A stretch of 64,000 nt of DNA from an uncultured Kordia sp. GTDB taxonomy: Bacteria > Bacteroidota > Bacteroidia > Flavobacteriales > Flavobacteriaceae. The stretch is from contig NZ_CANMEZ010000001.1 of NCBI RefSeq assembly GCF_947496985.1, positions 868,001 through 932,000 on the forward strand, written 5' to 3'. The notes below the pieces were generated by a model. That model saw only the letters and a program-made list of their open reading frames with translations, was not told the origin of the DNA and searched no databases. This document shows positions 31,126 through 50,783 of this stretch, piece by piece. Numbering within the stretch: the stretch's first letter is position 1; each line of letters starts with the position of its first letter. A program made the translations under genes and the position numbers.

Positions 31126-31662
31126 GTGAATAACGCTATACTATTTACACATAAAGATCTTGTTGAAAAAAGCAAGTTAGGTAATCGTAAAATGCAGTAC
31201 AAACTGTATTCATTATACGTTGATGCTATGTTTAATGTGAGTATTCGGATTGTGAAAATAAAAGAAGATGCGGAAGATGTAGTGCAAGATAGTTTTATAG
31301 ACGCATTCAAAAACCTTGATTCATTTAAATATGAAAGTACCTTTGGTTCGTGGTTAAAAAGAATTGTAATCAATAAAAGCATCAATTACCTAAAAGTAAA
31401 GCGGATTCCCCTAGTTGCTATAGAAGAACAAGAATACTGGATTCCTGAAAAAGAAGAAGAAATAAGTAAAGAAGACATAGACGTAGACAAAATAAAAAAT
31501 GCCATTCAACAATTACCAAATGGCTATCAAACAATCATTAATTTATACCTCATTGAAGGATATGACCACAAAGAAATAGGCGACATTTTAGAAATCAGTG
31601 TATCAACTTCAAAATCGCAATATCACCGCGCCAAAAAGAAGTTAATCCAATTAATAAATTGA
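31126..31662 (+). CDS. ECF-type RNA polymerase sigma factor
   Basis: Protein of 178 residues starting at GTG (no earlier or nearby ATG fits). Region 2 is YKLYSLYVDAMFNVSIRIVK, KIKEDAEDVVQDSFIDAFKNL (core-binding and -10 recognition), and region 4 is IQQLPNGYQTIINLYLIEGYDHKEIGDILEISVSTSKSQ in consecutive order (helix-turn-helix for -35 recognition). It has no region 3, as in ECF factors. The gene heads an operon with a membrane protein (anti-sigma candidate) starting 2 bases downstream, then a DUF4097-like protein. A GCAACCTTT-N13-GTC motif upstream suggests self-control and control of the receptor operon at 25.8 kb. Confidence 0.93.
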   Translation: MNNAILFTHKDLVEKSKLGNRKMQYKLYSLYVDAMFNVSIRIVKIKEDAEDVVQDSFIDAFKNLDSFKYESTFGSWLKRIVINKSINYLKVKRIPLVAIEEQEYWIPEKEEEISKEDIDVDKIKNAIQQLPNGYQTIINLYLIEGYDHKEIGDILEISVSTSKSQYHRAKKKLIQLIN

Positions 31663-31664
31663 TC

Positions 31665-32210
31665 ATGAAAGACGAATTAAAAGACTACATACAATCCCAC
31701 AGAAATGAGTTCGATGATCATTCCATAGACGAAGTTGACAGACTAAAGCTATGGGGAAAAATTAGCGAGCAATTGCCCGAAACACCTAAAAAAGTAATCC
31801 CATTATGGAAAAAAGCTTCATTTAGAGTTGCGGCAGCGGTTGTATTACTGTTCGGTTGTATGTTTGCATACTTTGCTACAAATCAATCAACAGGAGAATA
31901 TGATATGGTAAGTGAAGAATTCCGTCAAATAGATACGCATTACAAATCGTTGGTGGAAAATCAAATTCAGTTGGTAAAAAGCAGTACCAACTTATCCAAA
32001 GCAGCTCAAGAAGAGTTTTTAAGTTATATAGACGAGTTAGATAAAGAATACCTCAATCTAAAAAAAGAACTCAAACAAGGAGTCAACAATCAAATAATCA
32101 TTGAAGCAATCATAAACAACTATAGAAAAAAAATACAATTAATGGAAGATCTCTTACGAAGATCCTATCCAACTCAAAATACCCTAGACGATGGTGAGCT
32201 CATTCTATAA
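31665..32210 (+). CDS. membrane protein, probable anti-sigma factor
   Basis: Protein of 181 residues from the ATG two bases after the sigma gene stop (an in-frame TTG at 31659 would add two residues). A cytoplasmic N-terminal part of about 50 residues (DHSIDEVDRLKLWGKISEQLPE) is followed by one membrane helix (ASFRVAAAVVLLFGCMFAYFA, about residues 52-72) and a helical extracytoplasmic part rich in Glu, Lys and Gln. That topology and its position directly after an ECF sigma gene indicate a sigma-sequestering anti-sigma factor; no zinc HxxxCxxC motif is present, so it is not of the ZAS type. The family is not certain. Confidence 0.75.
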   Translation: MKDELKDYIQSHRNEFDDHSIDEVDRLKLWGKISEQLPETPKKVIPLWKKASFRVAAAVVLLFGCMFAYFATNQSTGEYDMVSEEFRQIDTHYKSLVENQIQLVKSSTNLSKAAQEEFLSYIDELDKEYLNLKKELKQGVNNQIIIEAIINNYRKKIQLMEDLLRRSYPTQNTLDDGELIL

Positions 32211-33276
32211 AACATTCCTTTTTGGAGTCTTATGCTTACTGTCTTATCAACACATGTTAGGACAGCATAAACTCAATAAAGAAATTCGGGAAACCTACGC
32301 TTTTACCGACGAAAATAAACTGTACTTAGAAAATTCGTACGGCAATATTTTCCTTACGGGATGGGACAAAAACACTATTGAAATTGTAGTAAATATAGAA
32401 GCGGAAGGAAAAAATGAAGACAAAGCAAAAAAATTGCTCGATAGAGTAAAAACAGACATTATTGACAACAATAATGAAGTAAAAATCATTTCTAAAATAG
32501 AAAAAAATGAAGGTGGGTTTTTAGGACGATATATCAGTAAAATAGATCCTTTTAAAAACGAAAAAACATTTATAAACTATACCATATATCTACCCAAAAA
32601 ATCAATGGTAGAAGTATACAATAAATATGGAGATATTACGATATCTGATTGGAGTGGAAAACTAAAAACGATAGTAGAGCATGGTGATTTACGAATTTCT
32701 AACGAATTAAAAAATGCAGAAATTACACTAAAACATGCTAAACTTGATGTTGTAGAGTTGTATGAATCATACATCATTTCAAAAGATGCAACCTTAGAAA
32801 TTCATAATGGAATTGACCTGAAAATTGATTCTGATGGTTCAGAAATGATCTTAAACAACATACAAAATTTAGAACTTAACGCTAACAAAGATAAAATAGA
32901 TATTGTGAAACTGAACAATATCTCAGGAGATATAAAATATTCAAAAACGGTGTTCAAAACTGTAGGAGGAAAGGTAAAACTCAATCTTTATTACGGAGAA
33001 TTGAGAATTCTAAAACATATACAGAACGAGCCAGATTTTAATATCAATCAACAAGAGGCAGAAGTATATATAAATATTTCTGAAACAAACTTTACTTTCA
33101 ATGCAAAATTAGAACAAGGAGTGTTGCGTATTCCAAAAACAATGGAAAATATAGAAAGTGAAATCATAGACAGAAAAGAGAAAATAAGACGTATAAGCGC
33201 TTCATATGGAGCAAAACAGACTGGAACGATAACATGTACTGGTTACAAAGGCGTCATCATCTTAAAAGAACTATAA
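32191..33276 (+). CDS. exported DUF4097-like beta-solenoid protein
   Basis: Protein of 361 residues overlapping the anti-sigma gene by 20 bases. Signal peptide MVSSFYKTFLFGVLCLLSYQHMLGQ in two halves, then repeated short beta segments: LYLENSYGNIFLTGWD, EVYNKYGDITISDWSG, TIVEHGDLRISNELK, EITLKHAKLDVVELYES. The repeated N-x-Y-G-D-I/L motif is typical of DUF4097 adhesin-like proteins, which are frequent third members of Bacteroidota ECF sigma operons. Probably periplasmic or outer-membrane associated, possibly the sensor of the system (inference). Confidence 0.82.
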   Translation: MVSSFYKTFLFGVLCLLSYQHMLGQHKLNKEIRETYAFTDENKLYLENSYGNIFLTGWDKNTIEIVVNIEAEGKNEDKAKKLLDRVKTDIIDNNNEVKIISKIEKNEGGFLGRYISKIDPFKNEKTFINYTIYLPKKSMVEVYNKYGDITISDWSGKLKTIVEHGDLRISNELKNAEITLKHAKLDVVELYESYIISKDATLEIHNGIDLKIDSDGSEMILNNIQNLELNANKDKIDIVKLNNISGDIKYSKTVFKTVGGKVKLNLYYGELRILKHIQNEPDFNINQQEAEVYINISETNFTFNAKLEQGVLRIPKTMENIESEIIDRKEKIRRISASYGAKQTGTITCTGYKGVIILKEL

Positions 33277-33305
33277 ATACGAAACAACCGAAACAACCAT
33301 ACAAA

Positions 33306-33977
33306 ATGAAAAAGTTAATAACTGCAGTATTCATACTATTCATTTTTAACACACTTACCGCACAAACGGACGAAACCAATGATTATTTCGAATTTGACGA
33401 TCGCAAAAACATTGTACATGGAGTCTATTTAGGATTTACACCACAATTTGGAAGAATATCTGGTGAAGATGCCGCGTTGATTAATTTAAAACTTGCCTAC
33501 GTAGCAAATAGAAAATTTGAAATAGGAATCTCTACAAGTGTATTTTTTAGTGCACAACCAAACAATACTAATGTGTATGCACGTGATGAAGTGCTTTTAG
33601 TTGGCGCTTATGGCGGATTACACATAGAGCCAATTCTATTTGGAAACAGGTTTGTAAGTATCTCTTTTCCTTTAATGATTGGTGGTGGAGTTGCAACTTT
33701 ACTTGAAAAAAAGGCTGATGGTGAATTTGACGAAACTTCTCTGGAAAATGATACAAATGACTATGATTCATTTTTAATTGCTGAACCAGGTGTAAATATA
33801 CTTTACAACATATCTCGTTTTATACAAATAGAAACAGGTGTACGGTATAGAATCTCAGAATCATTTCGATTACCATTCTACGGAAGAGATAATATCAAAG
33901 GGTTTTCTGTTGGTTTAGGACTAAAAATTGGAATCTTCAATATGGGAAGAAAGAAAAAAATTAAAGATAAATTCTAA
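33306..33977 (+). CDS. outer-membrane beta-barrel protein of the ECF operon
   Basis: Protein of 223 residues from the ATG at 33306 (MKKLITAVFILFIFNTLTAQ signal peptide); the frame is open upstream into the preceding gene, but the signal peptide fixes this start. Amphipathic strands (IVHGVYLGFTPQFGRISG, FEIGISTSVFFSAQP, IEPILFGNRFVSISFPLMIGGG-like pieces, FSVGLGLKIGIF) indicate an 8-10 strand barrel. It follows the DUF4097-like gene by 29 bases and is probably the last member of the sigma operon. Confidence 0.78.
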   Translation: MKKLITAVFILFIFNTLTAQTDETNDYFEFDDRKNIVHGVYLGFTPQFGRISGEDAALINLKLAYVANRKFEIGISTSVFFSAQPNNTNVYARDEVLLVGAYGGLHIEPILFGNRFVSISFPLMIGGGVATLLEKKADGEFDETSLENDTNDYDSFLIAEPGVNILYNISRFIQIETGVRYRISESFRLPFYGRDNIKGFSVGLGLKIGIFNMGRKKKIKDKF

Positions 33978-34683
33978 TGAAAGCAGTTTAGTTTAAAGCG
34001 AAAAAAACCTCGATAAATTTAGAATTACCGAGGGAAGAAAAACTAGTAAATAGGTTTGAGATGTATTTTCTTTTTCCCGAATATCTTTAAACAACTTTTC
34101 GGATGTTGTTATTTATTTTTCATAGCAATCTTTTCCCAATCCTTATTGTGTGTTTACAAGTAAAAAAAAGGGCAACAAAGACTTTAGCCTCGATCTCAAT
34201 AGCTTTGCTGCCACTTATTTTCAACTAATAAAAAACCGACTTAATTGAACTTCATTAGTTTTAAAATTTTTTATATCTCAAGAGATAATAAAATTTTGAT
34301 TTTAACTTAACTTGCTAATAAAACAGGCTATCTAGAAAATACCCTACCATTATTTTAAAAAAAAATAAAAAATTAGAAATTTAAATGTTAAAATTATCAA
34401 GAATTACTTGCTTAACTCCTGTTTTTACTAAGGATATGTAAGTTTTTAAAAAAATAAAAAATAATTTACTTTTTCTTCTAATTTCAACAATATCTTCTAA
34501 AAAAACTTGATGAAAACTTAAAATGCAACTGCTTTTTGAGTAAAATTTAATAGTTTCATCACACAAAACTCATCTAAAAAAAAAATCCTTAATTTTGGAG
34601 CAAACCAAAAAAACTCATCTTACCAACTTTTTTCACTAACCAGAAAAATGAAGACGAGCTCAAAACACTAATTATAAAAATTA
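33978..34683. other. 706-base AT-rich intergenic region
   Basis: Gap between the two sigma-factor loci. It contains a hairpin CCTCG-TAA / TTA-CGAGG at 34009-34033, an imperfect pair GGCAACAAAG / CTTTGCTGCC spanning 34171-34213, and a TAATTTTG -7 element at 34590-34597. A 61-codon minus-strand frame at 34381-34566 has no family resemblance and is not called as a gene. Whether the hairpins belong to an untranslated RNA cannot be judged by eye. Confidence 0.45.
34590..34597 (+). promoter_or_regulatory. TAnnTTTG -7 element before the FecI-like gene
   Basis: TAATTTTG fits the consensus exactly, 86 bases upstream of the ATG at 34684. It suggests housekeeping rather than ECF transcription of this sigma gene; no GCAACCTTT motif is found here. 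Confidence 0.45.
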
Positions 34684-35196
34684 ATGGCTACAGAGGAAAA
34701 ATCTGTTTGTGAATCAAAAAACTTTGAAACCATATTCAATGCCAACGCTGAAACGCTTCGTAATTTTATATATTACAAGTGTGGAAGTGAACAACAAGCA
34801 GAAGATATTGTTCAAGAAGCTTTCATAAAACTATGGAAAAATTGCGCAAAAGTAATATTTACCAAAGCAAAGTCGTTCTTGTACACGGTAGCCAATAATA
34901 CCTTCTTAAATGAAGTTGCGCACGAAAAAGTAGTTTTAAAATACAAACAACAAAACACAGGAAAAGTTTCCAACGAAACACCTGAATTCATTCTTAGAGA
35001 AAAAGAATTTCAAGAAAAACTACAACGCACCATCGCAAAGCTACCAGAAGGACAACGAGAAGTTTTTTTACTCAACAGAATTGATAAAAAAACATACAAA
35101 GAAATTGCAGAAATTATAGGACTTTCTGTAAAAGCAGTAGAAAAAAGAATGCACAAAGCGTTAGTAACGCTGAGAAAAGAAATAGGAAAAATATAA
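34684..35196 (+). CDS. FecI-type ECF sigma factor
   Basis: Protein of 170 residues. Region 2: LRNFIYYKCGSEQQAEDIVQ and EAFIKLWKN; region 4: LPEGQREVFLLNRIDKKTYK and EIAEIIGLSVKAVEKRMHKA, which is the LPxxQREVFxLxRxxxxxYxEIA form typical of Bacteroidota FecI-like factors. It is followed by a FecR-like anti-sigma gene (52 bases) and a FecA-like TonB receptor, so it most likely controls import of the receptor's substrate through a cell-surface signalling relay. Confidence 0.94.
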   Translation: MATEEKSVCESKNFETIFNANAETLRNFIYYKCGSEQQAEDIVQEAFIKLWKNCAKVIFTKAKSFLYTVANNTFLNEVAHEKVVLKYKQQNTGKVSNETPEFILREKEFQEKLQRTIAKLPEGQREVFLLNRIDKKTYKEIAEIIGLSVKAVEKRMHKALVTLRKEIGKI

Positions 35197-35248
35197 AAAA
35201 GGTAGGGTTTTCTTTGAGAAAACTGTTCTATTACTGAATCAAGTAGAA

Positions 35249-36166
35249 ATGATGGAAGATAAATATGACGATACATTTTTAGCAAAATGGCTAAGTGGTG
35301 ATATTTCGGAGGAGGAAAAAACTCGTTTTGAAACCACTACAGAGTATCAAGACTATATAAAAATCATAGAAGGCACAAACCAATTTGAAGCACCTTCTTT
35401 TGATAAGCAAAGTCTATTGTCTAAAATTAAAGACAAACAAGACAGAAAAGAAACAAAAAGAAGAAGGTTAGTTCCTTCTTGGATGTATGCAGCTGCCGCA
35501 GTAATATTGTTAGTAGTTGGATTTACATATGTATTTACTGCCGCAGGAGAAACATTTGAAACTGGTTACGGAAATCAAATGACAGTTGCGTTACCTGATG
35601 GATCAGAAGCAATTCTAAATGCAAAGTCAAGTATAACATTTGATAAAGAATTATGGGAAGATAACCGAACAGTTTCACTTACAGGAGAAGCGTATTTCAA
35701 AGTAAAAAAAGGAGAAAAATTTACGGTTTCTACAGATGCAGGAACGATAGAAGTGCTTGGAACACAATTCAATGTAAAAACTGCAGAAAACTTATTTGAA
35801 GTAAAATGTACAGAAGGAAAAGTAAGAGTTGAAACTTCAAACAGTGAAAAAGCAATCTTAACAGTAGGGAAAGCATTTTCTAAGTTAGAAGGAGAAACAA
35901 CGAATTGGGACTTCGATATAAAAGATGAAACATGGAGAGAAGGAGAAAGCAATTTCCGTGTAATCCCTTTAAAACATGTTATTACAGCTATTCAAAATCA
36001 ATACAACATAACAATCATACACGATAACATAGACACTACACAGCGCTTTACTGGGAGCTTTTCTCATAAAAATTTGAAACTTGCTTTGCGTACAGTCTTT
36101 GTTCCTATGGAAATTTCATATACTTTTAAGGACGAAAATACAGTTATCCTTAAAAAGGCGGAATAG
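35249..36166 (+). CDS. FecR-family anti-sigma/signal transducer
   Basis: Protein of 305 residues (a second ATG directly follows the first). The N-terminal cytoplasmic segment (LAKWLSGDISEEEKTRFE) is the sigma-binding part; one membrane helix lies at about residues 75-95 (WMYAAAAVILLVVGFTYVFT). The periplasmic part contains the FecR domain (YGNQMTVALPDGSEAILNAK, VSLTGEAYFKVKKG, TIEVLGTQFNVKT) and a C-terminal DUF4974/STN-like domain (NFRVIPLKHVITAIQNQYNI). It relays receptor occupancy to the sigma factor encoded 52 bases upstream; the receptor gene follows after 59 bases. Confidence 0.93.
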   Translation: MMEDKYDDTFLAKWLSGDISEEEKTRFETTTEYQDYIKIIEGTNQFEAPSFDKQSLLSKIKDKQDRKETKRRRLVPSWMYAAAAVILLVVGFTYVFTAAGETFETGYGNQMTVALPDGSEAILNAKSSITFDKELWEDNRTVSLTGEAYFKVKKGEKFTVSTDAGTIEVLGTQFNVKTAENLFEVKCTEGKVRVETSNSEKAILTVGKAFSKLEGETTNWDFDIKDETWREGESNFRVIPLKHVITAIQNQYNITIIHDNIDTTQRFTGSFSHKNLKLALRTVFVPMEISYTFKDENTVILKKAE

Positions 36167-36225
36167 CCCAACTTTTTTAATACAAAAGAAAGTCTTCGCC
36201 TATTATAGATTTACCATAGCGTAAT

Positions 36226-38826
36226 ATGAGAAGAATTATAAGTGTTGTTGTCTTATTCATCACAACTACATTGTTTGCACAAAACAATGTAGATCTCTCG
36301 TTTACAAATGAACCACTTCAAAACGTATTAACCACCATTGAAAAAGAATATGGTGTTAAATTCTCATATCGTGCAGATTTAGCAAAAGATAAAGTAATTA
36401 CGCTTACTCTTAAAAATGCTACTCTAAATACGGTTTTACAACGATTGCAAGCACAAGTTCCTATCGTTTTTGAAAAAGCAGATAAACGCTATTACATTAT
36501 TAGAAATAAAGAACAAGAAGGCAAAGTTCGAATATGCGGTATATTGGTTGATGCCCAAAATGAAATGCCTATCATAGATGCTTCTGTTGAAAACAAAACA
36601 CAATCCAAAGGAACATTTTCAAATTCAAACGGTTATTTTGAACTCTTCTTAACGAATCCAACGGATACCATAGAAGTTCGATATTTAGGATACAAACCAA
36701 AACAAGTTTTAGCAAAAGAATTAGAACAAAATCCGTGTGCAAAAATTCCTTTAATCGCAGAAAAATTTAGCTTAAAAGAAGTCCTAATCAGTAACTATAT
36801 CACTTCAGGAATCAACAAACAAAAAAATGGAGCCTTAACCATTTCTCCTTCAAAACTTGGAATACTTCCTGGGCTTACTGAGCCTGATGTATTACAAAGT
36901 ATTCAACTATTACCAGGTATTCAAAGCCCAAACGAAACTGCTTCAGGACTCTTCATTCGAGGAGGAACACCCGACCAAAACTTAATTCTTTGGGACGGAA
37001 TCAAAATGTATCATTCAGGTCACTTTTTTGGTTTAATATCTGCTTTCAATCCATATGTAATAGAAGAAGTATCTGTATATAAAAGTGGAACGGAAACACG
37101 TTATGGCGATCGAATTTCAGGAGTAATAGACATTCAAACTGATACCAAAGTTCCAGAAAAATTATCTGGCGGATTAGGGTTTAATATGACACATGTTGAT
37201 GCATACTTAAAAGTCCCTATTGGGAAAAAATTCGGAGTCATGGTATCAGCACGTAGAGCTTTTACAGATGCTTGGGAAACATTTACGTATGATAACTTTT
37301 CTGAACGTGTATTTCAAAATACAAAAATTACAAAAGGAACCGAAATCGCCGAAAATATATTCTCTGAGACAACAAACAGGTTCTTTTTTACAGATTACAC
37401 CGTAAAACTTATTGGAAACATTTCTGATAAAGACGAAATTATGCTTAGTAATTTAATGACGCAAAACGAACTCGATTTTGGCTCTAAAGTTGATTTTTTT
37501 GAAGAAACCTCACGTGATCAGTTAAGTATAAAAAACTCAGGCTTTAGCGGGTTTTGGAAACGTCAATGGAATGAAAAATTTTCACACGATCTAAACGTAT
37601 ACTATTCAAAATTTGATTTTGATTATTTAGGAAGATTTCAAGGAGATATGGTACAATTAGTAGAAGAAGATAGAAAGCAAAATACCATCAGAGATATTGG
37701 TTTTTCGTATGATACTTTTTGGAAAATCAGTGAAAAAAACGAAATCCAATCAGGATTTCAGTTCTCTTCCAATGATGTATCATATAGCTTTTCTGGATTT
37801 AGTGCTGATGAAGGTGGTGTAGATGCCTATGAATCAGCGGAAGAAAGTATCAACAATTCGTACGCATTATACACTTCATACAAATACAACAATAAGAAAA
37901 AACTAATTATCAATGCTGGATTGCGTGCTAACTATTTTAGTACCATTAGAACACTATTTTTAGAACCGCGAGTACACATTGAAAAAAGAATTGATAAAAA
38001 CTTTAGCACAACGCTTTCTGCCGAATTAAAACACCAAGCGGTAAGTCAAATCATAGAATTCAATACGGCAAACTTAGGTTTGGAAAACCAAGTATGGGCA
38101 ATTGCAAATGGTGATGATCTTCCAGTATTAAAAAGTCAGCAAATATCAGCAGGATTTCTATTCAATAAAAGTGGATGGCGTGTGAATTTAGATGGTTATT
38201 ACAAAAACATTAAAGGACTTACATCATTAAACAGAAGTTTTGGTAGTACAAGTGTTGTAGAAACGTTTACCAAAGGAAAAAGTAGAGTAATAGGTGTTGA
38301 TGTCTTGGTTGAAAAAAAGATTGATAACTATCAAACATGGATGGGCTATTCATACACAAATAACTCATTTGAATTTTCCCGAATCAACAATGGAGTTGCA
38401 TTTCCTGGAAACTACGATATAAAACACTATTTCCGTTGGGCACATTCGTATACGATGGGCAATTTTAAGTTTTCACTTGGCTGGAACTATCGTACCGGAA
38501 CACCATACACACCTGTAACGTCCGAAACACAATCAAACGGAGACTTATTTGTCTTTATAGGAGAAACGAATACAGTGCGCATCCCAGACTATCATCGCTT
38601 GGATTTTTCAGGTACTTATACGTTCGATTTCGATAAAAAGAACAGATGGAAAGGGAAAATAGGTTTTTCACTACTTAACATCTACAACCGTAAAAACTTG
38701 TTAGAACGTTTTTACGAAATCAGGCCTTTCATAAATGATAATAATGACGTGCAGTTTCGTTTGCAAACCGTTGATAATATTTCACTTGGCTTAACGCCGA
38801 ATTTAGTATTTAGAGTTGACTTTTAG
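36226..38826 (+). CDS. FecA-like TonB-dependent receptor with STN signalling domain
   Basis: Protein of 866 residues. Signal peptide to about residue 18 (LFITTTLFAQ), then an STN domain (VDLSFTNEPLQNVLTTIEKE, TLTLKNATLNTVLQRL; residues 20-90) that contacts the FecR protein, a carboxypeptidase-like domain (VRICGILVDAQNEMPIIDAS; about 100-185), a plug (PDVLQSIQLLPGIQSPNETA, LFIRGGTPDQNLILWDG) and a barrel ending LVFRVDF. The plug resembles that of the receptor at 25.8 kb. No DUF4249 gene follows. With the sigma and FecR genes it forms a complete surface-signalling uptake system; the substrate is unknown. Confidence 0.93.
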   Translation: MRRIISVVVLFITTTLFAQNNVDLSFTNEPLQNVLTTIEKEYGVKFSYRADLAKDKVITLTLKNATLNTVLQRLQAQVPIVFEKADKRYYIIRNKEQEGKVRICGILVDAQNEMPIIDASVENKTQSKGTFSNSNGYFELFLTNPTDTIEVRYLGYKPKQVLAKELEQNPCAKIPLIAEKFSLKEVLISNYITSGINKQKNGALTISPSKLGILPGLTEPDVLQSIQLLPGIQSPNETASGLFIRGGTPDQNLILWDGIKMYHSGHFFGLISAFNPYVIEEVSVYKSGTETRYGDRISGVIDIQTDTKVPEKLSGGLGFNMTHVDAYLKVPIGKKFGVMVSARRAFTDAWETFTYDNFSERVFQNTKITKGTEIAENIFSETTNRFFFTDYTVKLIGNISDKDEIMLSNLMTQNELDFGSKVDFFEETSRDQLSIKNSGFSGFWKRQWNEKFSHDLNVYYSKFDFDYLGRFQGDMVQLVEEDRKQNTIRDIGFSYDTFWKISEKNEIQSGFQFSSNDVSYSFSGFSADEGGVDAYESAEESINNSYALYTSYKYNNKKKLIINAGLRANYFSTIRTLFLEPRVHIEKRIDKNFSTTLSAELKHQAVSQIIEFNTANLGLENQVWAIANGDDLPVLKSQQISAGFLFNKSGWRVNLDGYYKNIKGLTSLNRSFGSTSVVETFTKGKSRVIGVDVLVEKKIDNYQTWMGYSYTNNSFEFSRINNGVAFPGNYDIKHYFRWAHSYTMGNFKFSLGWNYRTGTPYTPVTSETQSNGDLFVFIGETNTVRIPDYHRLDFSGTYTFDFDKKNRWKGKIGFSLLNIYNRKNLLERFYEIRPFINDNNDVQFRLQTVDNISLGLTPNLVFRVDF

Positions 38827-46903: not shown

Positions 46904-49030
46904 ATGACCGAACTTCAATATATAAAATCACAACTTTCATTACCAGAAAAAAGTATTCTCAAAACAATTCAATTACTCAATGAAGATTGTACAATTCCTT
47001 TTATTTCAAGATATCGAAAAGAAATGACAGGAAACTTAGATGAGGTTCAAATAGGTCAAATTGTAAAACTAAAAACGGCTTTTGCAGAATTAGAAAAAAG
47101 ACGAGAAACCATTTTAAAAGCTATTACGGAACAAGATGCGCTAACGTCACAATTACAGGAAAAAATCGCGCAAGCGAAAACATTAACAGCCCTAGAAGAT
47201 ATCTACTTACCCTACAAAAAAAAGCGTAAAACAAAAGCTTCTATTGCCAAAGAAAATGGATTAGAGTCGTTGGCAAAAATCATCATGAAGCAACAACATG
47301 AAGACGTAAACTATGCTGCGCAACGTTTTGTAAAAGGAGAAGTCGTTTCTACAGAAAAAGCGCTGGAAGGCGCTCGACACATAATTGCTGAGTGGATTAA
47401 TGAAAACGAATACGTTAGAAACAAAATAAGACGTCTATATCAGCGAAAAGCGACAATTACAACCAAAGTGGTCAAAACAAAAAAAGACGACGATAGCGCA
47501 CAGAAATATAAGCAGTATTTTGATTGGAGTGAATCACTACATAGAACACCATCGCATCGATTATTAGCAATGTTACGCGCAGAAAAAGAAGATTTCATCA
47601 AACTAAAAGTTGCTGTTGATAAAGAGGAAGCATTAGACATGATCGATGGATTGATCATTAAAACTGATGTAGCTTCTTGCACAGATCAAGTATTTATGGC
47701 TATTGAAGATGCATATAAGCGTTTGCTATCACCAGCCATTGTAAATGAAGTGATGAATGATGTCAAGGGAAAAGCCGATACAACCGCAATTTCGGTATTT
47801 GCGGACAATTTAAAACAACTACTACTTGGTGCGCCACTAGGTCAAAAACGTGTGTTAGCATTGGATCCAGGATTCAAATCGGGTTGTAAAGTAGTGTGTT
47901 TGGATGAAAAAGGCGATTTATTACATAATGAAAATATCTATCCACATCCGCCACAGCGAAAAACAACTGACGCAGGTAAAAAAATTCGTTCGTTGGTAAA
48001 TGCATATAAAATTCAAGCCATTGCTATTGGAAATGGAACCGCTTCGCGTGAAACAGAATTCTTTATCAAAAAGATTCAATTTGATCGCGATTTGCAAGTA
48101 TTTATCGTAAACGAAGCTGGCGCCTCTGTATATTCTGCTTCCAAAATTGCACGTGCTGAATTTCCAAATTATGATGTTACGGTTCGTGGTGCAGTTTCTA
48201 TTGGAAGACGATTGAAAGATCCGTTGGCAGAATTGGTGAAAATTGACCCAAAAGCCATCGGTGTTGGACAATATCAGCACGATGTTGATCAAACGAAACT
48301 GAAAGAAGAATTAGATACAGTTGTAATGAGTTGCGTAAACGCAGTTGGTGTCAATGTAAACACAGCAAGTAGTGCATTATTGAGTTATGTATCTGGAATT
48401 GGTGCAAACTTGGCAGAAAATGTGGTAAAATTTAGATCGGAAAACGGAAAAATTGATTCTCGAAATAGTTTGAAAAAAGTACCGCGATTAGGTCCAAAAG
48501 CATTTCAACAAGCTGCGGCATTCTTACGAATTACGGATGCCAAACATCCGTTAGACAATTCTACTGTGCATCCAGAAAGTTATCATATTGCGGAAAAAAT
48601 GGCAAAAGATGCAAAGCTTTCGGTAGATGAATTAATTGGAAATAAAACTGTTTTAAGTACAATTAAACTCGAAAATTATTGCACAGAAACCATTGGATTG
48701 CCAACCTTGAACGATATTGTAAAAGAATTGGAAAAACCTGGCGTTGATCCGCGAAAAACGGCAAAACTCTTTGAATTTGATCCGAATGTAAAAAACATTT
48801 CTGATGTAAAAGTTGGTATGTCTTTGCCTGGAATTGTAAACAACATTACCAATTTTGGCTGTTTTGTAGATATTGGAATCAAAGAAAGTGGGTTGGTACA
48901 CATTTCAAAATTGGCCAACGAATTTATAAGTGATGTCAATTCGGTAGTAAAATTACACCAACATGTAACTGTCACAGTTGTTGAGGTTGACGAAAGTAGA
49001 AAGCGAATTCAGTTGTCTATGATTGATTAA
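46904..49030 (+). CDS. tex: Tex-family RNA-binding transcription accessory protein
   Basis: Protein of 708 residues with the full Tex order: N-terminal helical region (IPFISRYRKEMTGNLDEVQI), central YqgF/RuvC-like domain (VLALDPGFKSGCKVVCLDEK, AIGNGTASRETEFF), helix-hairpin-helix repeats (VNTASSALLSYVSGIGANLA, KKVPRLGPKAFQQAAAFLRI) and a C-terminal S1 domain (VGMSLPGIVNNITNFGCFVD, KESGLVHISKLA). It binds nucleic acid and influences transcription elongation and ribosome traffic. Length is slightly under the usual 720-780. Convergent with the RiPP-like gene, separated by a hairpin at 49048. Confidence 0.95.
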   Translation: MTELQYIKSQLSLPEKSILKTIQLLNEDCTIPFISRYRKEMTGNLDEVQIGQIVKLKTAFAELEKRRETILKAITEQDALTSQLQEKIAQAKTLTALEDIYLPYKKKRKTKASIAKENGLESLAKIIMKQQHEDVNYAAQRFVKGEVVSTEKALEGARHIIAEWINENEYVRNKIRRLYQRKATITTKVVKTKKDDDSAQKYKQYFDWSESLHRTPSHRLLAMLRAEKEDFIKLKVAVDKEEALDMIDGLIIKTDVASCTDQVFMAIEDAYKRLLSPAIVNEVMNDVKGKADTTAISVFADNLKQLLLGAPLGQKRVLALDPGFKSGCKVVCLDEKGDLLHNENIYPHPPQRKTTDAGKKIRSLVNAYKIQAIAIGNGTASRETEFFIKKIQFDRDLQVFIVNEAGASVYSASKIARAEFPNYDVTVRGAVSIGRRLKDPLAELVKIDPKAIGVGQYQHDVDQTKLKEELDTVVMSCVNAVGVNVNTASSALLSYVSGIGANLAENVVKFRSENGKIDSRNSLKKVPRLGPKAFQQAAAFLRITDAKHPLDNSTVHPESYHIAEKMAKDAKLSVDELIGNKTVLSTIKLENYCTETIGLPTLNDIVKELEKPGVDPRKTAKLFEFDPNVKNISDVKVGMSLPGIVNNITNFGCFVDIGIKESGLVHISKLANEFISDVNSVVKLHQHVTVTVVEVDESRKRIQLSMID

Positions 49031-49088: not shown

Positions 49089-49313
49089 TTAACAACAAAC
49101 TGCATTTGAATCAGTACATGGTTGAGTTTCCAACGTTATTAACGGCGGACAATCAGCTGTGCAATTTTGCTTTGAACAATTCCAAAGGGAATGTATAGGT
49201 GAACATCCGTCAGAGCATCCGCCAGTAATGACTTTTCCTCCATGAACCTTGGTTAAATTGGATACAATTTTTTTACTAAGATGTAACTTTGATTTAAAAT
49301 TTCTTTTCTTCAT
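49089..49313 (-). CDS. Cys-rich RiPP precursor (class I lanthipeptide-like) 1
   Basis: Peptide of 74 residues. A basic leader (MKKRNFKSKLHLSKKIVSNL) ends in two Gly-Gly sites (HGG and ITGG, residues 25-32), after which the core is rich in Cys, Ser and Thr: CSDGCSP, NCSKQNCTADCPP, PCTDSNAVCC, eight cysteines in about 42 residues. The leader pattern K...L.L.K..(I/V)SNL...GG recurs in the two neighbouring small genes and resembles the leaders of Bacteroidota class I lanthipeptide precursors. It follows the larger precursor gene by 24 bases on the same strand. No LanB, LanC or peptidase gene is in the window, so modification would occur in trans. Final chemistry is unknown. Confidence 0.72.
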   Translation of the reverse strand: MKKRNFKSKLHLSKKIVSNLTKVHGGKVITGGCSDGCSPIHSLWNCSKQNCTADCPPLITLETQPCTDSNAVCC

Positions 49314-49337
49314 AAAAATAGTTTTGATGTATAAATA

Positions 49338-49619
49338 TTAAGCACAAGTATATACGGTTGGTTCGTCTGGAGAACAATTTGCAGGTGTAGTTAAATCTCC
49401 ACAACCGTCAGTAACACAGTTTTCTATAGTTGGGCATATGTAGGTAGGTGAGCATCCATAAGCAGGATCGGTAGCGCCACAAAGTGCGGAATTTCCTGGA
49501 GGTCCACAAATACCAAAAGAACAATATGAGGTATTATTTAGCTTTCCACCAATTACGTTATGTGCGTTTGCTAAATTTGAAATACTTGTTTTGTTTAACT
49601 TGAGATTCTTTTTTTTCAT
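49338..49619 (-). CDS. Cys-rich RiPP precursor (class I lanthipeptide-like) 2
   Basis: Peptide of 93 residues. Leader MKKKNLKLNKTSISNLANAH ends NVIGG (Gly pair at 24-25); the core of about 68 residues holds nine cysteines with many Ser, Thr, Pro and Gly (SYCSFGICGPPGN, LCGATDPAYGCSP, ICPTIENCVTDGCGD, ANCSPDEP, YTCA). Ser/Thr and Cys in alternation are suitable for lanthionine formation, although disulfides are also possible. It is the first gene of a minus-strand pair and shares leader features with the genes at 49089 and 49889. Confidence 0.74.
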   Translation of the reverse strand: MKKKNLKLNKTSISNLANAHNVIGGKLNNTSYCSFGICGPPGNSALCGATDPAYGCSPTYICPTIENCVTDGCGDLTTPANCSPDEPTVYTCA

Positions 49620-49888
49620 AATTTTATTTTTATGTTAATGATGAATCAAATAACAAGAAGAAAAGAGGGAAATCAAAAGAACATAACCCATAATTATCGA
49701 ATTACTGGAAATTAAATATTATATATAAACCACTCATTTTCAGCAGATTATGTTATTCATGCGTTAACTTCAATATTTAAAGAAAGTTGTTGTAGAGATT
49801 GATACAAAAAATGTCACGTTTTCATTTCTTTTTGGTTATACGTGTAGAAGGAAGCTAGGAAGGCTTCTATAAATTTAAACCGTTTATT

Positions 49889-50098
49889 ATGAAAAAAAGA
49901 AAATCAAATTCGTTAACATTTAAAAAAGTGACAGTTAGCAATTTTTTAATTGGAGGAGTCTACAGACCATCAGATCATGCATGTGCATCTGCTGTTAGTT
50001 GTGAATCAATTTGTTTTTGTGTACCTGCTACAGAAACTTGTAATTGTGAAGACCAAGCACCAGGCAAAACAGTTCATTGTGACGGACCAGCTGGGTAG
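49889..50098 (+). CDS. Cys-rich RiPP precursor (class I lanthipeptide-like) 3
   Basis: Peptide of 69 residues on the opposite strand from its two relatives. Leader MKKRKSNSLTFKKVTVSNFL ends IGG (residues 21-23); the core has seven cysteines (ACASAVSCESICFCVP, TCNCEDQ, HCDGPAG). The shared basic start, S-N-F/L and Gly-Gly identify it as a divergent member of the same small family. It is transcribed divergently from the pair at 49089-49619 with a 269-base gap, and ends at a perfect terminator. Confidence 0.7.
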   Translation: MKKRKSNSLTFKKVTVSNFLIGGVYRPSDHACASAVSCESICFCVPATETCNCEDQAPGKTVHCDGPAG

Positions 50099-50127: not shown

Positions 50128-50163
50128 AAAGACTAATAAGTTTCAACTTATTAGTCTTTTATT
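50128..50163. terminator. perfect bidirectional terminator
   Basis: Fifteen-base perfect stem AAAGACTAATAAGTT / AACTTATTAGTCTTT with a two-base loop, ending in T on both strands. It follows the third precursor gene by 29 bases and overlaps the last codons of the minus-strand lipoprotein gene at 50151. Confidence 0.92.
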
Positions 50164-50783
50164 TTTTCAACAACACCTTTACACATTCCCATCATATAAA
50201 AACCACCTGAGCCTATAAAATACATTCGGTTTTCTTCCAATAGAAATTCGTGAGGTGCTTTGCTAATATACGTCCAAACAGAGCTTTTTCCTTTGGAGTT
50301 TAGCAACATTTCGTAGATTGCTTGTGCGTTTTCTGAAGTTTTAAAAATGTATTCTTCAATTGTAAATCTTGGATAAGTGTTTCCGTTTGGTTGCATTGGC
50401 TTGGCACCTTTTAAAAATGATTTTCGTATTTCATGAAGCCCATGTTTAAATGATTTTATATCGATGAATTGAATAGTGTCTTTCAGTTTCAAAACACGCT
50501 TTAAACCACCTAAAAGGATTGTTTTTTCTGATGGAACAATTTCAAGACTTTTCAGTTGATATTGATGTTTTAATTGTGATAAGCGCGTTACTTTTTCTTT
50601 CAACTTTGAAGTAAGCTCTACTTTTTTAATAGGTTCACTTTCGTGAGAATTGACTTTTGGAGAAACCGTATCTTTTGAAGCTTCTAGTTGCTGTTCTTTC
50701 TCAGGAATTGCCTTTTCTTTCTCTTCACAAGCAGAAAATAATACAAGAGAAATAACAAGGAAAAAAGGCGCGATTGTTTTCAT
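50151..50783 (-). CDS. lipoprotein of unknown function
   Basis: Protein of 210 residues with a lipobox (VISLVLFSAC, Cys 19) and an acidic, lysine-rich linker of about 50 residues, then a globular part (TSKLKEKVTRLSQLKHQYQL, TYPRFTIEEYIFKTSENAQA, HEFLLEENRMYFIGSGGFYM). No family recognised. Its last codons lie inside a terminator stem. It sits downstream of the esterase gene on the same strand (24-base gap) and could be cotranscribed with it. Confidence 0.75.
   Translation of the reverse strand: MKTIAPFFLVISLVLFSACEEKEKAIPEKEQQLEASKDTVSPKVNSHESEPIKKVELTSKLKEKVTRLSQLKHQYQLKSLEIVPSEKTILLGGLKRVLKLKDTIQFIDIKSFKHGLHEIRKSFLKGAKPMQPNGNTYPRFTIEEYIFKTSENAQAIYEMLLNSKGKSSVWTYISKAPHEFLLEENRMYFIGSGGFYMMGMCKGVVEKIKD

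What the first reader, a model, noticed from the sequence alone, without database searches (positions are those of the whole stretch)
49089..50098. Three orphan RiPP (lanthipeptide-like) precursors without modifying enzymes
Genes at 49089-49313, 49338-49619 and 49889-50098 encode peptides with a shared basic leader (K...SNL/F...GG) and divergent cores with 7-9 cysteines plus many Ser/Thr. There is no LanB, LanC, radical-SAM enzyme, peptidase or exporter within the window. Multiple unlike cores next to each other suggest combinatorial substrates of enzymes encoded elsewhere.
Basis: partly seen in the sequence, partly recalled or inferred. Interest (0 to 1): 0.75.

Follow-up and report, generated by a model that had tools for sequence, protein, structure and literature searches.

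The report
Scattered lanthipeptide precursors sharing one enzyme
Three small genes here encode likely precursors of ring-containing peptides whose modifying enzymes sit about 440 kb away, and they belong to a set of at least 252 similar precursor genes scattered over this marine bacterium's genome, some of them placed right behind a gene for a possible peptide-sensing regulator.

Summary
The three ORFs are real and exactly where stated. They have the leader plan of Bacteroidota class I lanthipeptide precursors (LxLxKx5L then GG, loosened in the third). All 24 core cysteines can be paired with distinct Ser/Thr 3-6 residues N-terminal; full pairing was reached by 17, 24 and 0 of 20,000 shuffles. 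The genome (a Kordia) has one lanB, 391 kb from the window edge, in a locus with lanC, a separate LanB C-domain, three leader-type ORFs and a C39 exporter. The leader family is genome-wide: at least 252 precursors in 123 clusters. Over 252 cores, 1105 of 1225 Cys have Ser/Thr 3-6 residues N-terminal (54% shuffled), while the C-terminal side is at chance. All 11 genus genomes searched have exactly one lanB and 23 or more leaders. So the trio are most likely lanthipeptide precursors modified in trans. Kordia's RiPP richness is already in print (PMC11118758). Not seen in my paper searches is a module: a TPR-AraC regulator with a precursor about 100 bp downstream, 22 of 38 such regulators here and 26 of 30 congener loci, suggesting that some peptides are signals. 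No chemistry or expression could be tested.

The parts
49089..49313 (-). Precursor P1, 74 aa. Leader 49236-49313 (to the first GG); core with 8 Cys. A second GG (HGGKVITGG) leaves the cleavage site open.
   Evidence: its core has paralogues elsewhere in the genome (L061, L075, L103, L056), eight local scores of 96-110 against a shuffled maximum of 65
49338..49619 (-). Precursor P2, 93 aa. Leader 49545-49619; core with 9 Cys. Same strand as P1, 24 bp upstream of it.
   Evidence: LxLxKx5L exact
49889..50098 (+). Precursor P3, 69 aa, divergent from P1/P2. Leader 49889-49957; core with 7 Cys.
   Evidence: orthologs at the same place in congeners G001 (L135) and G004 (L131), none in G003 and G008, which keep the same right-hand neighbour
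49812..49857 (+). Upstream element of P3 (TGTCACGTTTT..GGTTATA..GTAGAA), kept at the same place in G004 and also in G008, where the precursor ORF is missing; putative promoter or 5' region
   Evidence: alignment of G000, G004, G008; not a genome-wide motif (TGTCACGTTTT in 1 of 194 upstream regions)
46904..49030 (+). Left flank: Tex (S1/YqgF) gene used as the synteny anchor
50151..50783 (-). Right flank: 210 aa protein with no Pfam match at E<=1e-6, next to the site also in G001, G003, G004 and G008

Best explanation
The three ORFs are class I lanthipeptide precursors of a Kordia species whose modification machinery acts in trans. Steps: (1) the basic leader (LxLxKx5L) is bound by the single LanB; (2) LanB (glutamylation part) and the separate Lant_dehydr_C protein (elimination part) dehydrate core Ser/Thr with glutamyl-tRNA; (3) LanC adds each Cys to a dehydrated residue 3-6 positions N-terminal; (4) the C39-peptidase ABC exporter with its HlyD partner cuts after GG and exports the peptide. 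The same machinery serves at least 252 scattered precursors with a conserved leader and divergent cores, which are gained and lost locus by locus. Shown by sequence: the leader family, the enzymes' presence, LanB and LanC in all 11 genus genomes searched, the directional Ser/Thr-Cys geometry, and presence/absence of precursors at this site. Inferred: binding, dehydration, ring formation, export. What the window trio's products do is open; signalling or antagonism are the likely roles.
For: One lanB locus (L002): LanC, PF04738, PF14028, TPR-AraC, three leader-type ORFs, HlyD, C39-ABC; exporter N-terminus with QLDQMDCGPTCL. Genus: 11 of 11 genomes have exactly one PF04738 match, each with a LanC just upstream, and 23-60 NF038153 leaders at E<=0.01 (in 10 of 11 genomes not all candidates were scored). 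Family sample of 299 genomes: 10 of 11 leader-positive genomes have LanB against 15 of 288 leader-negative ones. Cis linkage: 19 of 20 lanB loci of named genomes carry a leader ORF in the fetched flanks, for example a closely similar leader 0.4 kb from LanC and 1.6 kb from LanB in a Lacinutrix. Geometry: 1105 of 1225 Cys with Ser/Thr at -3..-6 (shuffled 0.543, max 0.587); C-terminal control 642 of 1225 (shuffled 0.542); fully pairable cores 192 of 244 (2-7 residues; shuffled mean 33.9, max 50; C-terminal control 20). The cores played no part in selecting the ORFs. GG in the expected stretch in 187 of 194 (shuffled mean 38.6, max 51), though the search models themselves contain the GG.
Against: All three score below the NF038153 cut-off. 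The precursors inside the lanB locus have a somewhat different leader (LNKLNLTKSRIAELN, residue A where most have S). Three further LanC proteins exist without a LanB beside them and could serve some precursors. One leader-positive family genome (G199) has no PF04738 match. 15 lanB-positive family genomes show no leader at E<=0.001 with NF038153, where only up to 25 candidates per genome were scored. At this site the trio is not conserved: P1 and P2 in none and P3 in 2 of 10 congeners within 1.5 kb of Tex. One of the 20 named lanB loci (Aminicenantes, 8 kb contig) shows no leader. No expression or chemical data.
Confidence: 0.82

Rival explanations
1. The peptides are exported Cys-rich peptides that fold with disulfides; the leader serves only C39 export and no lanthionines form.
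For: Many Cys per core (median 5) and a GG leader would also fit bacteriocin-like disulfide peptides.
Against: Ser/Thr is enriched only on the N-terminal side of Cys at 3-6 residues and can be paired one to one; disulfides predict no such direction. 117 of 252 cores have an odd number of Cys. The leader family tracks lanB.
Confidence: 0.08
2. The trio is modified by another enzyme system: radical SAM thioether/sactipeptide chemistry, or one of the lanB-less LanC loci (nucleotidyltransferase + LanC on C15; APH-like kinase + HopA1 + LanC on C1).
For: PMC11118758 (section 7 read, passages seen) assigns part of the Kordia RiPPs to radical SAM clusters and mentions LanC + nucleotidyltransferase around Kordia precursors; both lanB-less LanC loci exist here and three leader-bearing precursors flank the C15 LanC.
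Against: Only 1 of 425 neighbouring ORFs in 81 fetched stretches shows CxxxCxxC in its first 200 residues, and it looks like BioB. Genome-wide radical SAM genes were not searched. Sactipeptides do not need Ser/Thr N-terminal to Cys (established knowledge).
Confidence: 0.08
3. The trio are decaying or silent copies without a product.
For: Presence varies: no precursor in G003 and G008, although G008 keeps the element upstream of P3, and P1 and P2 are absent near Tex in all 10 congeners.
Against: All three ORFs are intact with every Cys pairable; P3 kept leader, GG and the first four core Cys in its orthologs in G001 and G004.
Confidence: 0.1
4. Signal reading for part of the family: the precursor about 100 bp downstream of a TPR-AraC regulator is the ligand of that regulator, so the precursor set contains many self-sensing channels. 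The window trio would be effector or orphan members.
For: 22 of 38 regulators have a same-strand precursor 71-124 bp downstream; among the 22 regulators not used to build the query, 11 lie within 500 bp of a precursor, against about 1.8 expected by scaling the random placements; 26 of 30 congener loci; 8 of 8 Kordia lanB loci fetched by name carry a regulator, 5 of 8 with a leader ORF 85-91 bp downstream. The model has a TPR superhelix, one long helix and an AraC domain, and the peptide sensors Rap and NprR have the highest TM-scores to the query in the 50 rows shown. Sensor and core similarity correlate (r 0.28, P 0.001).
Against: TPR folds are common and the best E-values are LGN, not Rap. 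The correlation can come from duplicating both genes together. 12 of 38 regulators have no precursor within 500 bp. 3 of 8 Kordia and 3 of 6 Aquimarina lanB loci show none within 390 bp downstream. The window trio has no such regulator beside it.
Confidence: 0.25

Closest known systems
Prochlorosins/synechococsins (ProcM/SyncM with many ProcA/SyncA; class II)
   Same: A single promiscuous enzyme, many precursors with conserved GG leader and divergent cores, scattered singly or in tandem; up to 83 per genome (PMC10783134, passages).
   Different: Class II LanM and Nif11-type leader there; here a class I split LanB + LanC and a short basic LxLxKx5L leader, and at least 252 precursors.
Bacteroidetes class I lanthipeptides (pinensin; Pedobacter lusitanus peptides; NCBIfam NF038153)
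   Same: LxLxKx5L leader, GG end and a C39 protease in the cluster are described for class I LanAs of Bacteroidetes (PMC7268733, passages).
   Different: The passages I saw concern precursors found with their gene clusters; here nearly all lie elsewhere. Details of pinensin and Pedobacter peptides are recalled or seen only as citations.
RiPP-rich Kordia in TrRiPP mining (PMC11118758)
   Same: Reports Bacteroidota genomes with up to 176 RiPP precursors, names Kordia as an example, and notes LanC + nucleotidyltransferase near Kordia precursors.
   Different: The parts I read do not describe one lanB serving the scattered set, the Ser/Thr-Cys geometry, or TPR-AraC/precursor modules; figures, supplements and the rest of the text were not seen.
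RRNPP peptide sensors (Rap-Phr, NprR)
   Same: TPR sensor gene directly followed by a small peptide gene (recalled); similar TPR superhelix.
   Different: Here the TPR part follows an N-terminal signal-like segment and is joined through a long helix to an AraC HTH; membrane placement is my reading of the sequence; the peptide is RiPP-like.

Membership tests
Class I lanthipeptide precursors (LanA), Bacteroidota type | Leader with LxLxKx5L (published for a number of Bacteroidetes class I LanAs) | tested here: met
   P1 and P2 exact; P3 has F at two Leu positions, so loosely met. 114 of 194 precursors exact.
Class I lanthipeptide precursors (LanA), Bacteroidota type | GG end of the leader, matched to a C39 peptidase exporter in the genome | tested here: met
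   GG in all three; C39-ABC with DCGPTCL in the lanB locus
Class I lanthipeptide precursors (LanA), Bacteroidota type | Core Cys each with a Ser/Thr N-terminal partner at ring distance | tested here: met
   24 of 24 Cys
Class I lanthipeptide precursors (LanA), Bacteroidota type | LanB and LanC in the genome | tested here: met
   not next to the trio
Class I lanthipeptide precursors (LanA), Bacteroidota type | Dehydration and thioether rings in the product | not testable with these tools
   needs MS
NCBIfam NF038153 lant_leader_L1a | Score above the curated cut-off of 22 bits | tested here: not met
   15.7, 11.2 and 12.7 bits; so the trio is not filed under this model, although about 30 places elsewhere in the genome are above it
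Prochlorosin system | Class II LanM synthetase | tested here: not met
   The enzyme set found with the leader family is PF04738 + PF14028 + LanC. Works like a prochlorosin system, is not one. A LanM-specific model was not run.
RRNPP sensors (for the TPR-AraC regulators) | Cytoplasmic TPR protein with Xre-type HTH or none (recalled) | tested here: not met
   AraC HTH_18 and N-terminal signal-like segment; resemblance only

The most novel reading that the evidence does not exclude
The scattered precursors are largely a many-channel communication system built on lanthipeptides: one shared LanB/LanC/C39 line makes and exports more than 250 different peptides, and dozens of TPR-membrane-AraC receptors each sense the peptide encoded about 100 bp downstream, as Rap-Phr pairs do, but across the envelope and with modified peptides. 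New channels arise by duplicating receptor and precursor together, while precursors without receptors (such as the window trio) are outputs or competitor signals.
Probability: 0.2. Interest if true: 0.88.

Novelty: new variant of a known kind. Interest (0 to 1): 0.62.

Why it matters
A class I enzyme set serving at least 252 genomic substrates would exceed the 83 precursors reported for a prochlorosin-type genome and the 176 RiPP precursors reported for a Bacteroidota genome (counting methods differ), and would be a natural library with a built-in pairing rule. Mining that starts from enzyme clusters would miss most of these genes because no modifying enzyme lies nearby. The regulator-precursor modules make an open question, what such huge RiPP sets are for, directly testable.

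Tried and rejected
Radical SAM modification as the main route: only one CxxxCxxC ORF (BioB-like) among 425 neighbours; genome-wide radical SAM genes were not searched. A shared promoter motif: the element upstream of P3 occurs in 1 of 194 upstream regions; the most enriched 9-mers are A/T-rich words seen in 8-17 of 194. A conserved core motif for regulator-linked precursors: three patterns tried, at most 2 of 22. Mobile elements at the site: by eye the alignment of three species shows no repeats or insertion borders; no repeat tool was run. Leader count from NF038153 alone: 147 matches at E<=10, with only 150 of 246 candidates scored, and at that threshold 5 of 14 control genomes also ring; 51 at E<=0.01, where 0 of 14 ring. 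So the count was redone with own-genome leader models. The two lists share 78 places, giving a rough capture-recapture figure of 283, which is not independent and not used. Of 93 clusters of NF038153 places, three (C1:597211, C5:123375, C8:31094; weak matches in long frames) were not fetched. 12 of the 147 places were not in my first 194 precursors; at least L040:2501-2743 entered later. P2 and P3 themselves were not among the 147. Literature: PMC9845027 (Pedobacter) is not held.

Full report
OBSERVATION. The three ORFs exist as stated: P1 49089-49313 (-), P2 49338-49619 (-), P3 49889-50098 (+). P1 and P2 are in tandem and P3 is divergent. Each begins with a Lys-rich leader ending in GG, followed by a core with 8, 9 or 7 Cys. 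Of 58 window ORFs of 100 aa or more, 46 were scanned with Pfam at E<=1e-6; none is a LanB, LanC, radical SAM, C39 or ABC export protein; there are an S8 subtilase and an M23 peptidase. The only NCBIfam match of the three is NF038153 (class I lanthipeptide leader), below its cut-off; Pfam gives none.

WHERE THE ENZYMES ARE. The window is C1:868001-932000 of a 5.48 Mb draft genome. The genome has one PF04738 match (C1:475412-477382), 391 kb from the window edge and about 440 kb from the trio. Its locus (L002) holds LanC, LanB, a separate PF14028 protein (LanB is split), a TPR-AraC regulator, three leader-type ORFs (the first only weakly so: HMM E 0.49) and, on the other strand, HlyD and an ABC exporter with a C39 domain whose N-terminus, read across two adjoining stretches, carries QLDQMDCGPTCL. 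That this is the C39 active-site motif, and the glutamyl-tRNA chemistry of LanB, are established knowledge and were not tested. A subtilase (L002:3070-4407) about 4.7 kb from lanC could be a second maturation peptidase. Three further LanC-like proteins lie elsewhere.

A GENOME-WIDE FAMILY. NF038153 gives 147 places in this genome at E<=10 with 150 of 246 candidates scored; at E<=0.01 it gives 51. From stretches around these places (90 of 93 clusters, window) I collected 194 precursors; a model from 80 of their leaders gave 150 places, the worst at E 5e-5, of which 43 were new. After fetching those surroundings, a leader HMM built from all 194 leaders found 252 ORFs at E<=0.01 among 2,701 ORFs of 30-200 aa in 839,302 bases, against 0 of 2,701 shuffled ORFs. 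They form 123 clusters (58 single, largest 8). 252 is a lower bound, since part of the candidates was never scored (150 of 363) and 85% of the genome was seen only through these searches. Random pairs share 50% identity in the leader and 27% in the core (25% with one core shuffled).

CHEMICAL SIGNATURE. LanB/LanC chemistry as known joins a Cys to a Ser/Thr, typically N-terminal to it. In 252 cores 1105 of 1225 Cys have a Ser/Thr 3-6 residues N-terminal (shuffled mean 0.543, max 0.587 of 300); on the C-terminal side 642 of 1225 (shuffled 0.542). Of 244 cores with at least two Cys, 192 allow every Cys its own Ser/Thr at 2-7 residues N-terminal (shuffled mean 33.9, max 50; C-terminal control 20); at the narrower 3-6 residues 144 of 244 (shuffled 15.8, max 24; C-terminal control 7). 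In the window trio all 24 Cys pair at 3-6 residues; complete pairing arose in 17, 24 and 0 of 20,000 shuffles. This direction is not predicted by disulfide bonding, and 117 of 252 cores have an odd number of Cys. One core has no Cys at all (L073).

LINK BETWEEN LEADER AND LanB. In the genus 11 of 11 genomes have exactly one PF04738 match, each with a LanC directly upstream, and 23-60 NF038153 matches at E<=0.01. In a family sample of 299 genomes LanB is in 25 and the leader (E<=0.001) in 11, of which 10 have LanB; the exception is G199 with one match. 15 lanB genomes showed no leader at that threshold, with at most 25 candidates scored per genome. In four genomes outside the genus (G028, G087, G187, G306) a leader lies within 4 kb of LanB. 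Of 20 named lanB loci (8 Kordia, 6 Aquimarina, 2 Psychroserpens, Lacinutrix, Leptobacterium, an unclassified Flavobacteriaceae, an Aminicenantes MAG), 19 hold a leader ORF in the fetched stretch.

GAIN AND LOSS AT THE SITE. The Tex gene anchors the site in 10 congeners. Within 1.5 kb downstream, G001 and G004 have an ortholog of P3 only; G003 and G008 have the same right-hand neighbour gene but no precursor, and G008 keeps the element upstream of P3; the other six show other genes next to Tex and no leader ORF. P1 and P2 occur at this site only here. The first part of the P3 core (ACxSAVSCESxCFCxP) is kept in both orthologs, the rest is not. P1 has close core paralogues at four other places (L061, L075, L103, L056), P2 and P3 only weak ones.

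REGULATOR-PRECURSOR MODULES. All-against-all comparison of 425 neighbours in 81 fetched stretches gave three families present in three or more stretches: TPR/AraC regulators (24), LytTR-type regulators (7) and exporters (3). The first group of 28 ORFs, joined by single linkage, also took in AraC proteins without TPR and histidine kinases. A profile of 16 full-length members finds 38 full-length copies in this genome (I took those above 285 bits, of 53 listed). 26 of 38 lie within 500 bp of a precursor (random placement mean 3.1, max 9 of 2,000); 22 have it on the same strand 71-124 bp downstream. Because 16 regulators were chosen from fetched precursor stretches, the fair test is the other 22: 11 within 500 bp, about 1.8 expected by scaling. 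In congeners 26 of 30 loci (those handed out, of 231 matches at E<=1e-80) have a precursor 92-115 bp downstream; the four misses are regulators beside lanB. At the named lanB loci 5 of 8 Kordia show a leader ORF 85-91 bp downstream of the regulator and 3 of 6 Aquimarina at 142-155 bp; the others none within 390 bp. Pfam shows TPR and HTH_18 in five of five tested; the model (mean pLDDT 87) has a TPR superhelix, a long helix (340-431) and the AraC part. Foldseek's best E-values are LGN-type TPRs; Rap with its peptide (0.42) and NprR and a phage Rap (0.41) have the highest TM-scores to the query in the 50 rows shown. Sensor and core similarity correlate (r 0.28, P 0.001; 21 of 22 pairs), which co-duplication also explains. 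The regulator-linked leaders are a subtype (A instead of S in 13 of 22 against 31 of 230). The window holds no such regulator.

MECHANISM AND VERDICT. Best reading: the trio are substrates, in trans, of the only LanB/LanC/C39 line found in the genome, members of a very large scattered set. It works like the prochlorosin system but is class I. Confidence 0.82 for modification in trans by this line; the biological role of the trio is open. The signalling reading for the regulator-linked part is the most novel one not excluded.

WHAT IS IN PRINT. PMC7268733 (passages): LxLxKx5L + GG + C39 in Bacteroidetes class I LanAs. PMC10783134 (passages): up to 83 SyncA in one genome, scattered. PMC11118758 (section 7 and passages): up to 176 RiPP precursors in a Bacteroidota genome, Kordia highlighted, LanC + nucleotidyltransferase near Kordia precursors. 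PMC7477175 (passages): a lanthipeptide cluster among nine clusters of K. antarctica. PMC10734526 (passages): Kordia rich in clusters, a proteusin-like one shown. PMC9248904 (passages): Kordia with 10 clusters on average. PMC12328550 (passages): review of lanthipeptide enzyme promiscuity. PMC10352776 (passages): TPR proteins noted in two Bacteroidales RiPP clusters. For TPR-AraC regulators next to RiPP precursors, three searches listed 1, 0 and 6 papers; of these I read only passages of PMC10352776, and did not see the module described. The library lacks most subscription papers.

Noticed in passing
L117:6398-11270 (own genome C1:143001-163000): A 460 aa protein of GPTGTQGCTQPGHC repeats (no Pfam match at E<=0.001) directly upstream of an APH-like kinase, a HopA1 protein and a LanC: looks like a class V-type lanthipeptide locus (name recalled) with a giant Cys/Thr repeat substrate; a subtilase-like protein with a kumamolisin pro-domain lies upstream.
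   Followed up: partly
L111:4501-7719 (own genome C15): LanC and a nucleotidyltransferase-fold protein flanked by three leader-bearing precursors, no LanB nearby; PMC11118758 mentions such a pairing in Kordia.
   Followed up: partly
L116:8812-10692 (own genome C5): LanC-like protein inside what looks like a PKS/NRPS cluster with dioxygenase-like ORFs; the enzyme names other than LanC are my reading.
   Followed up: no
38 places in the own genome; L175-L204 in congeners: TPR-AraC regulators, 22 of 38 here and 26 of 30 in congeners with a leader-bearing precursor about 100 bp downstream.
   Followed up: yes
L073:2336-2560 (-): A leader-bearing precursor whose core has no Cys but TDTFTDT-type Thr repeats.
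   Followed up: no
L066:4933-5088, L070:2501-2662; L179, L181, L183, L184, L187: A regulator-linked precursor type with a short C-terminal end (C....C[YF]) seen in several congeners, unlike the variable other cores.
   Followed up: no
L092:2290-2475, L092:3134-3349, L111:8666-8833: A second small GG-leader type (ML.N...L.G) beside the lanthipeptide-type precursors.
   Followed up: no
seven fetched stretches, for example L095:3253-4029: LytTR-type response regulators next to precursors in 7 of 81 stretches; no background control made.
   Followed up: no
L002:3070-4407 (-): An S8 subtilase about 4.7 kb from lanC, a possible leader peptidase.
   Followed up: no
window 31126-38826: Two ECF-type sigma factor genes, FecR and a TonB-dependent receptor.
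   Followed up: no
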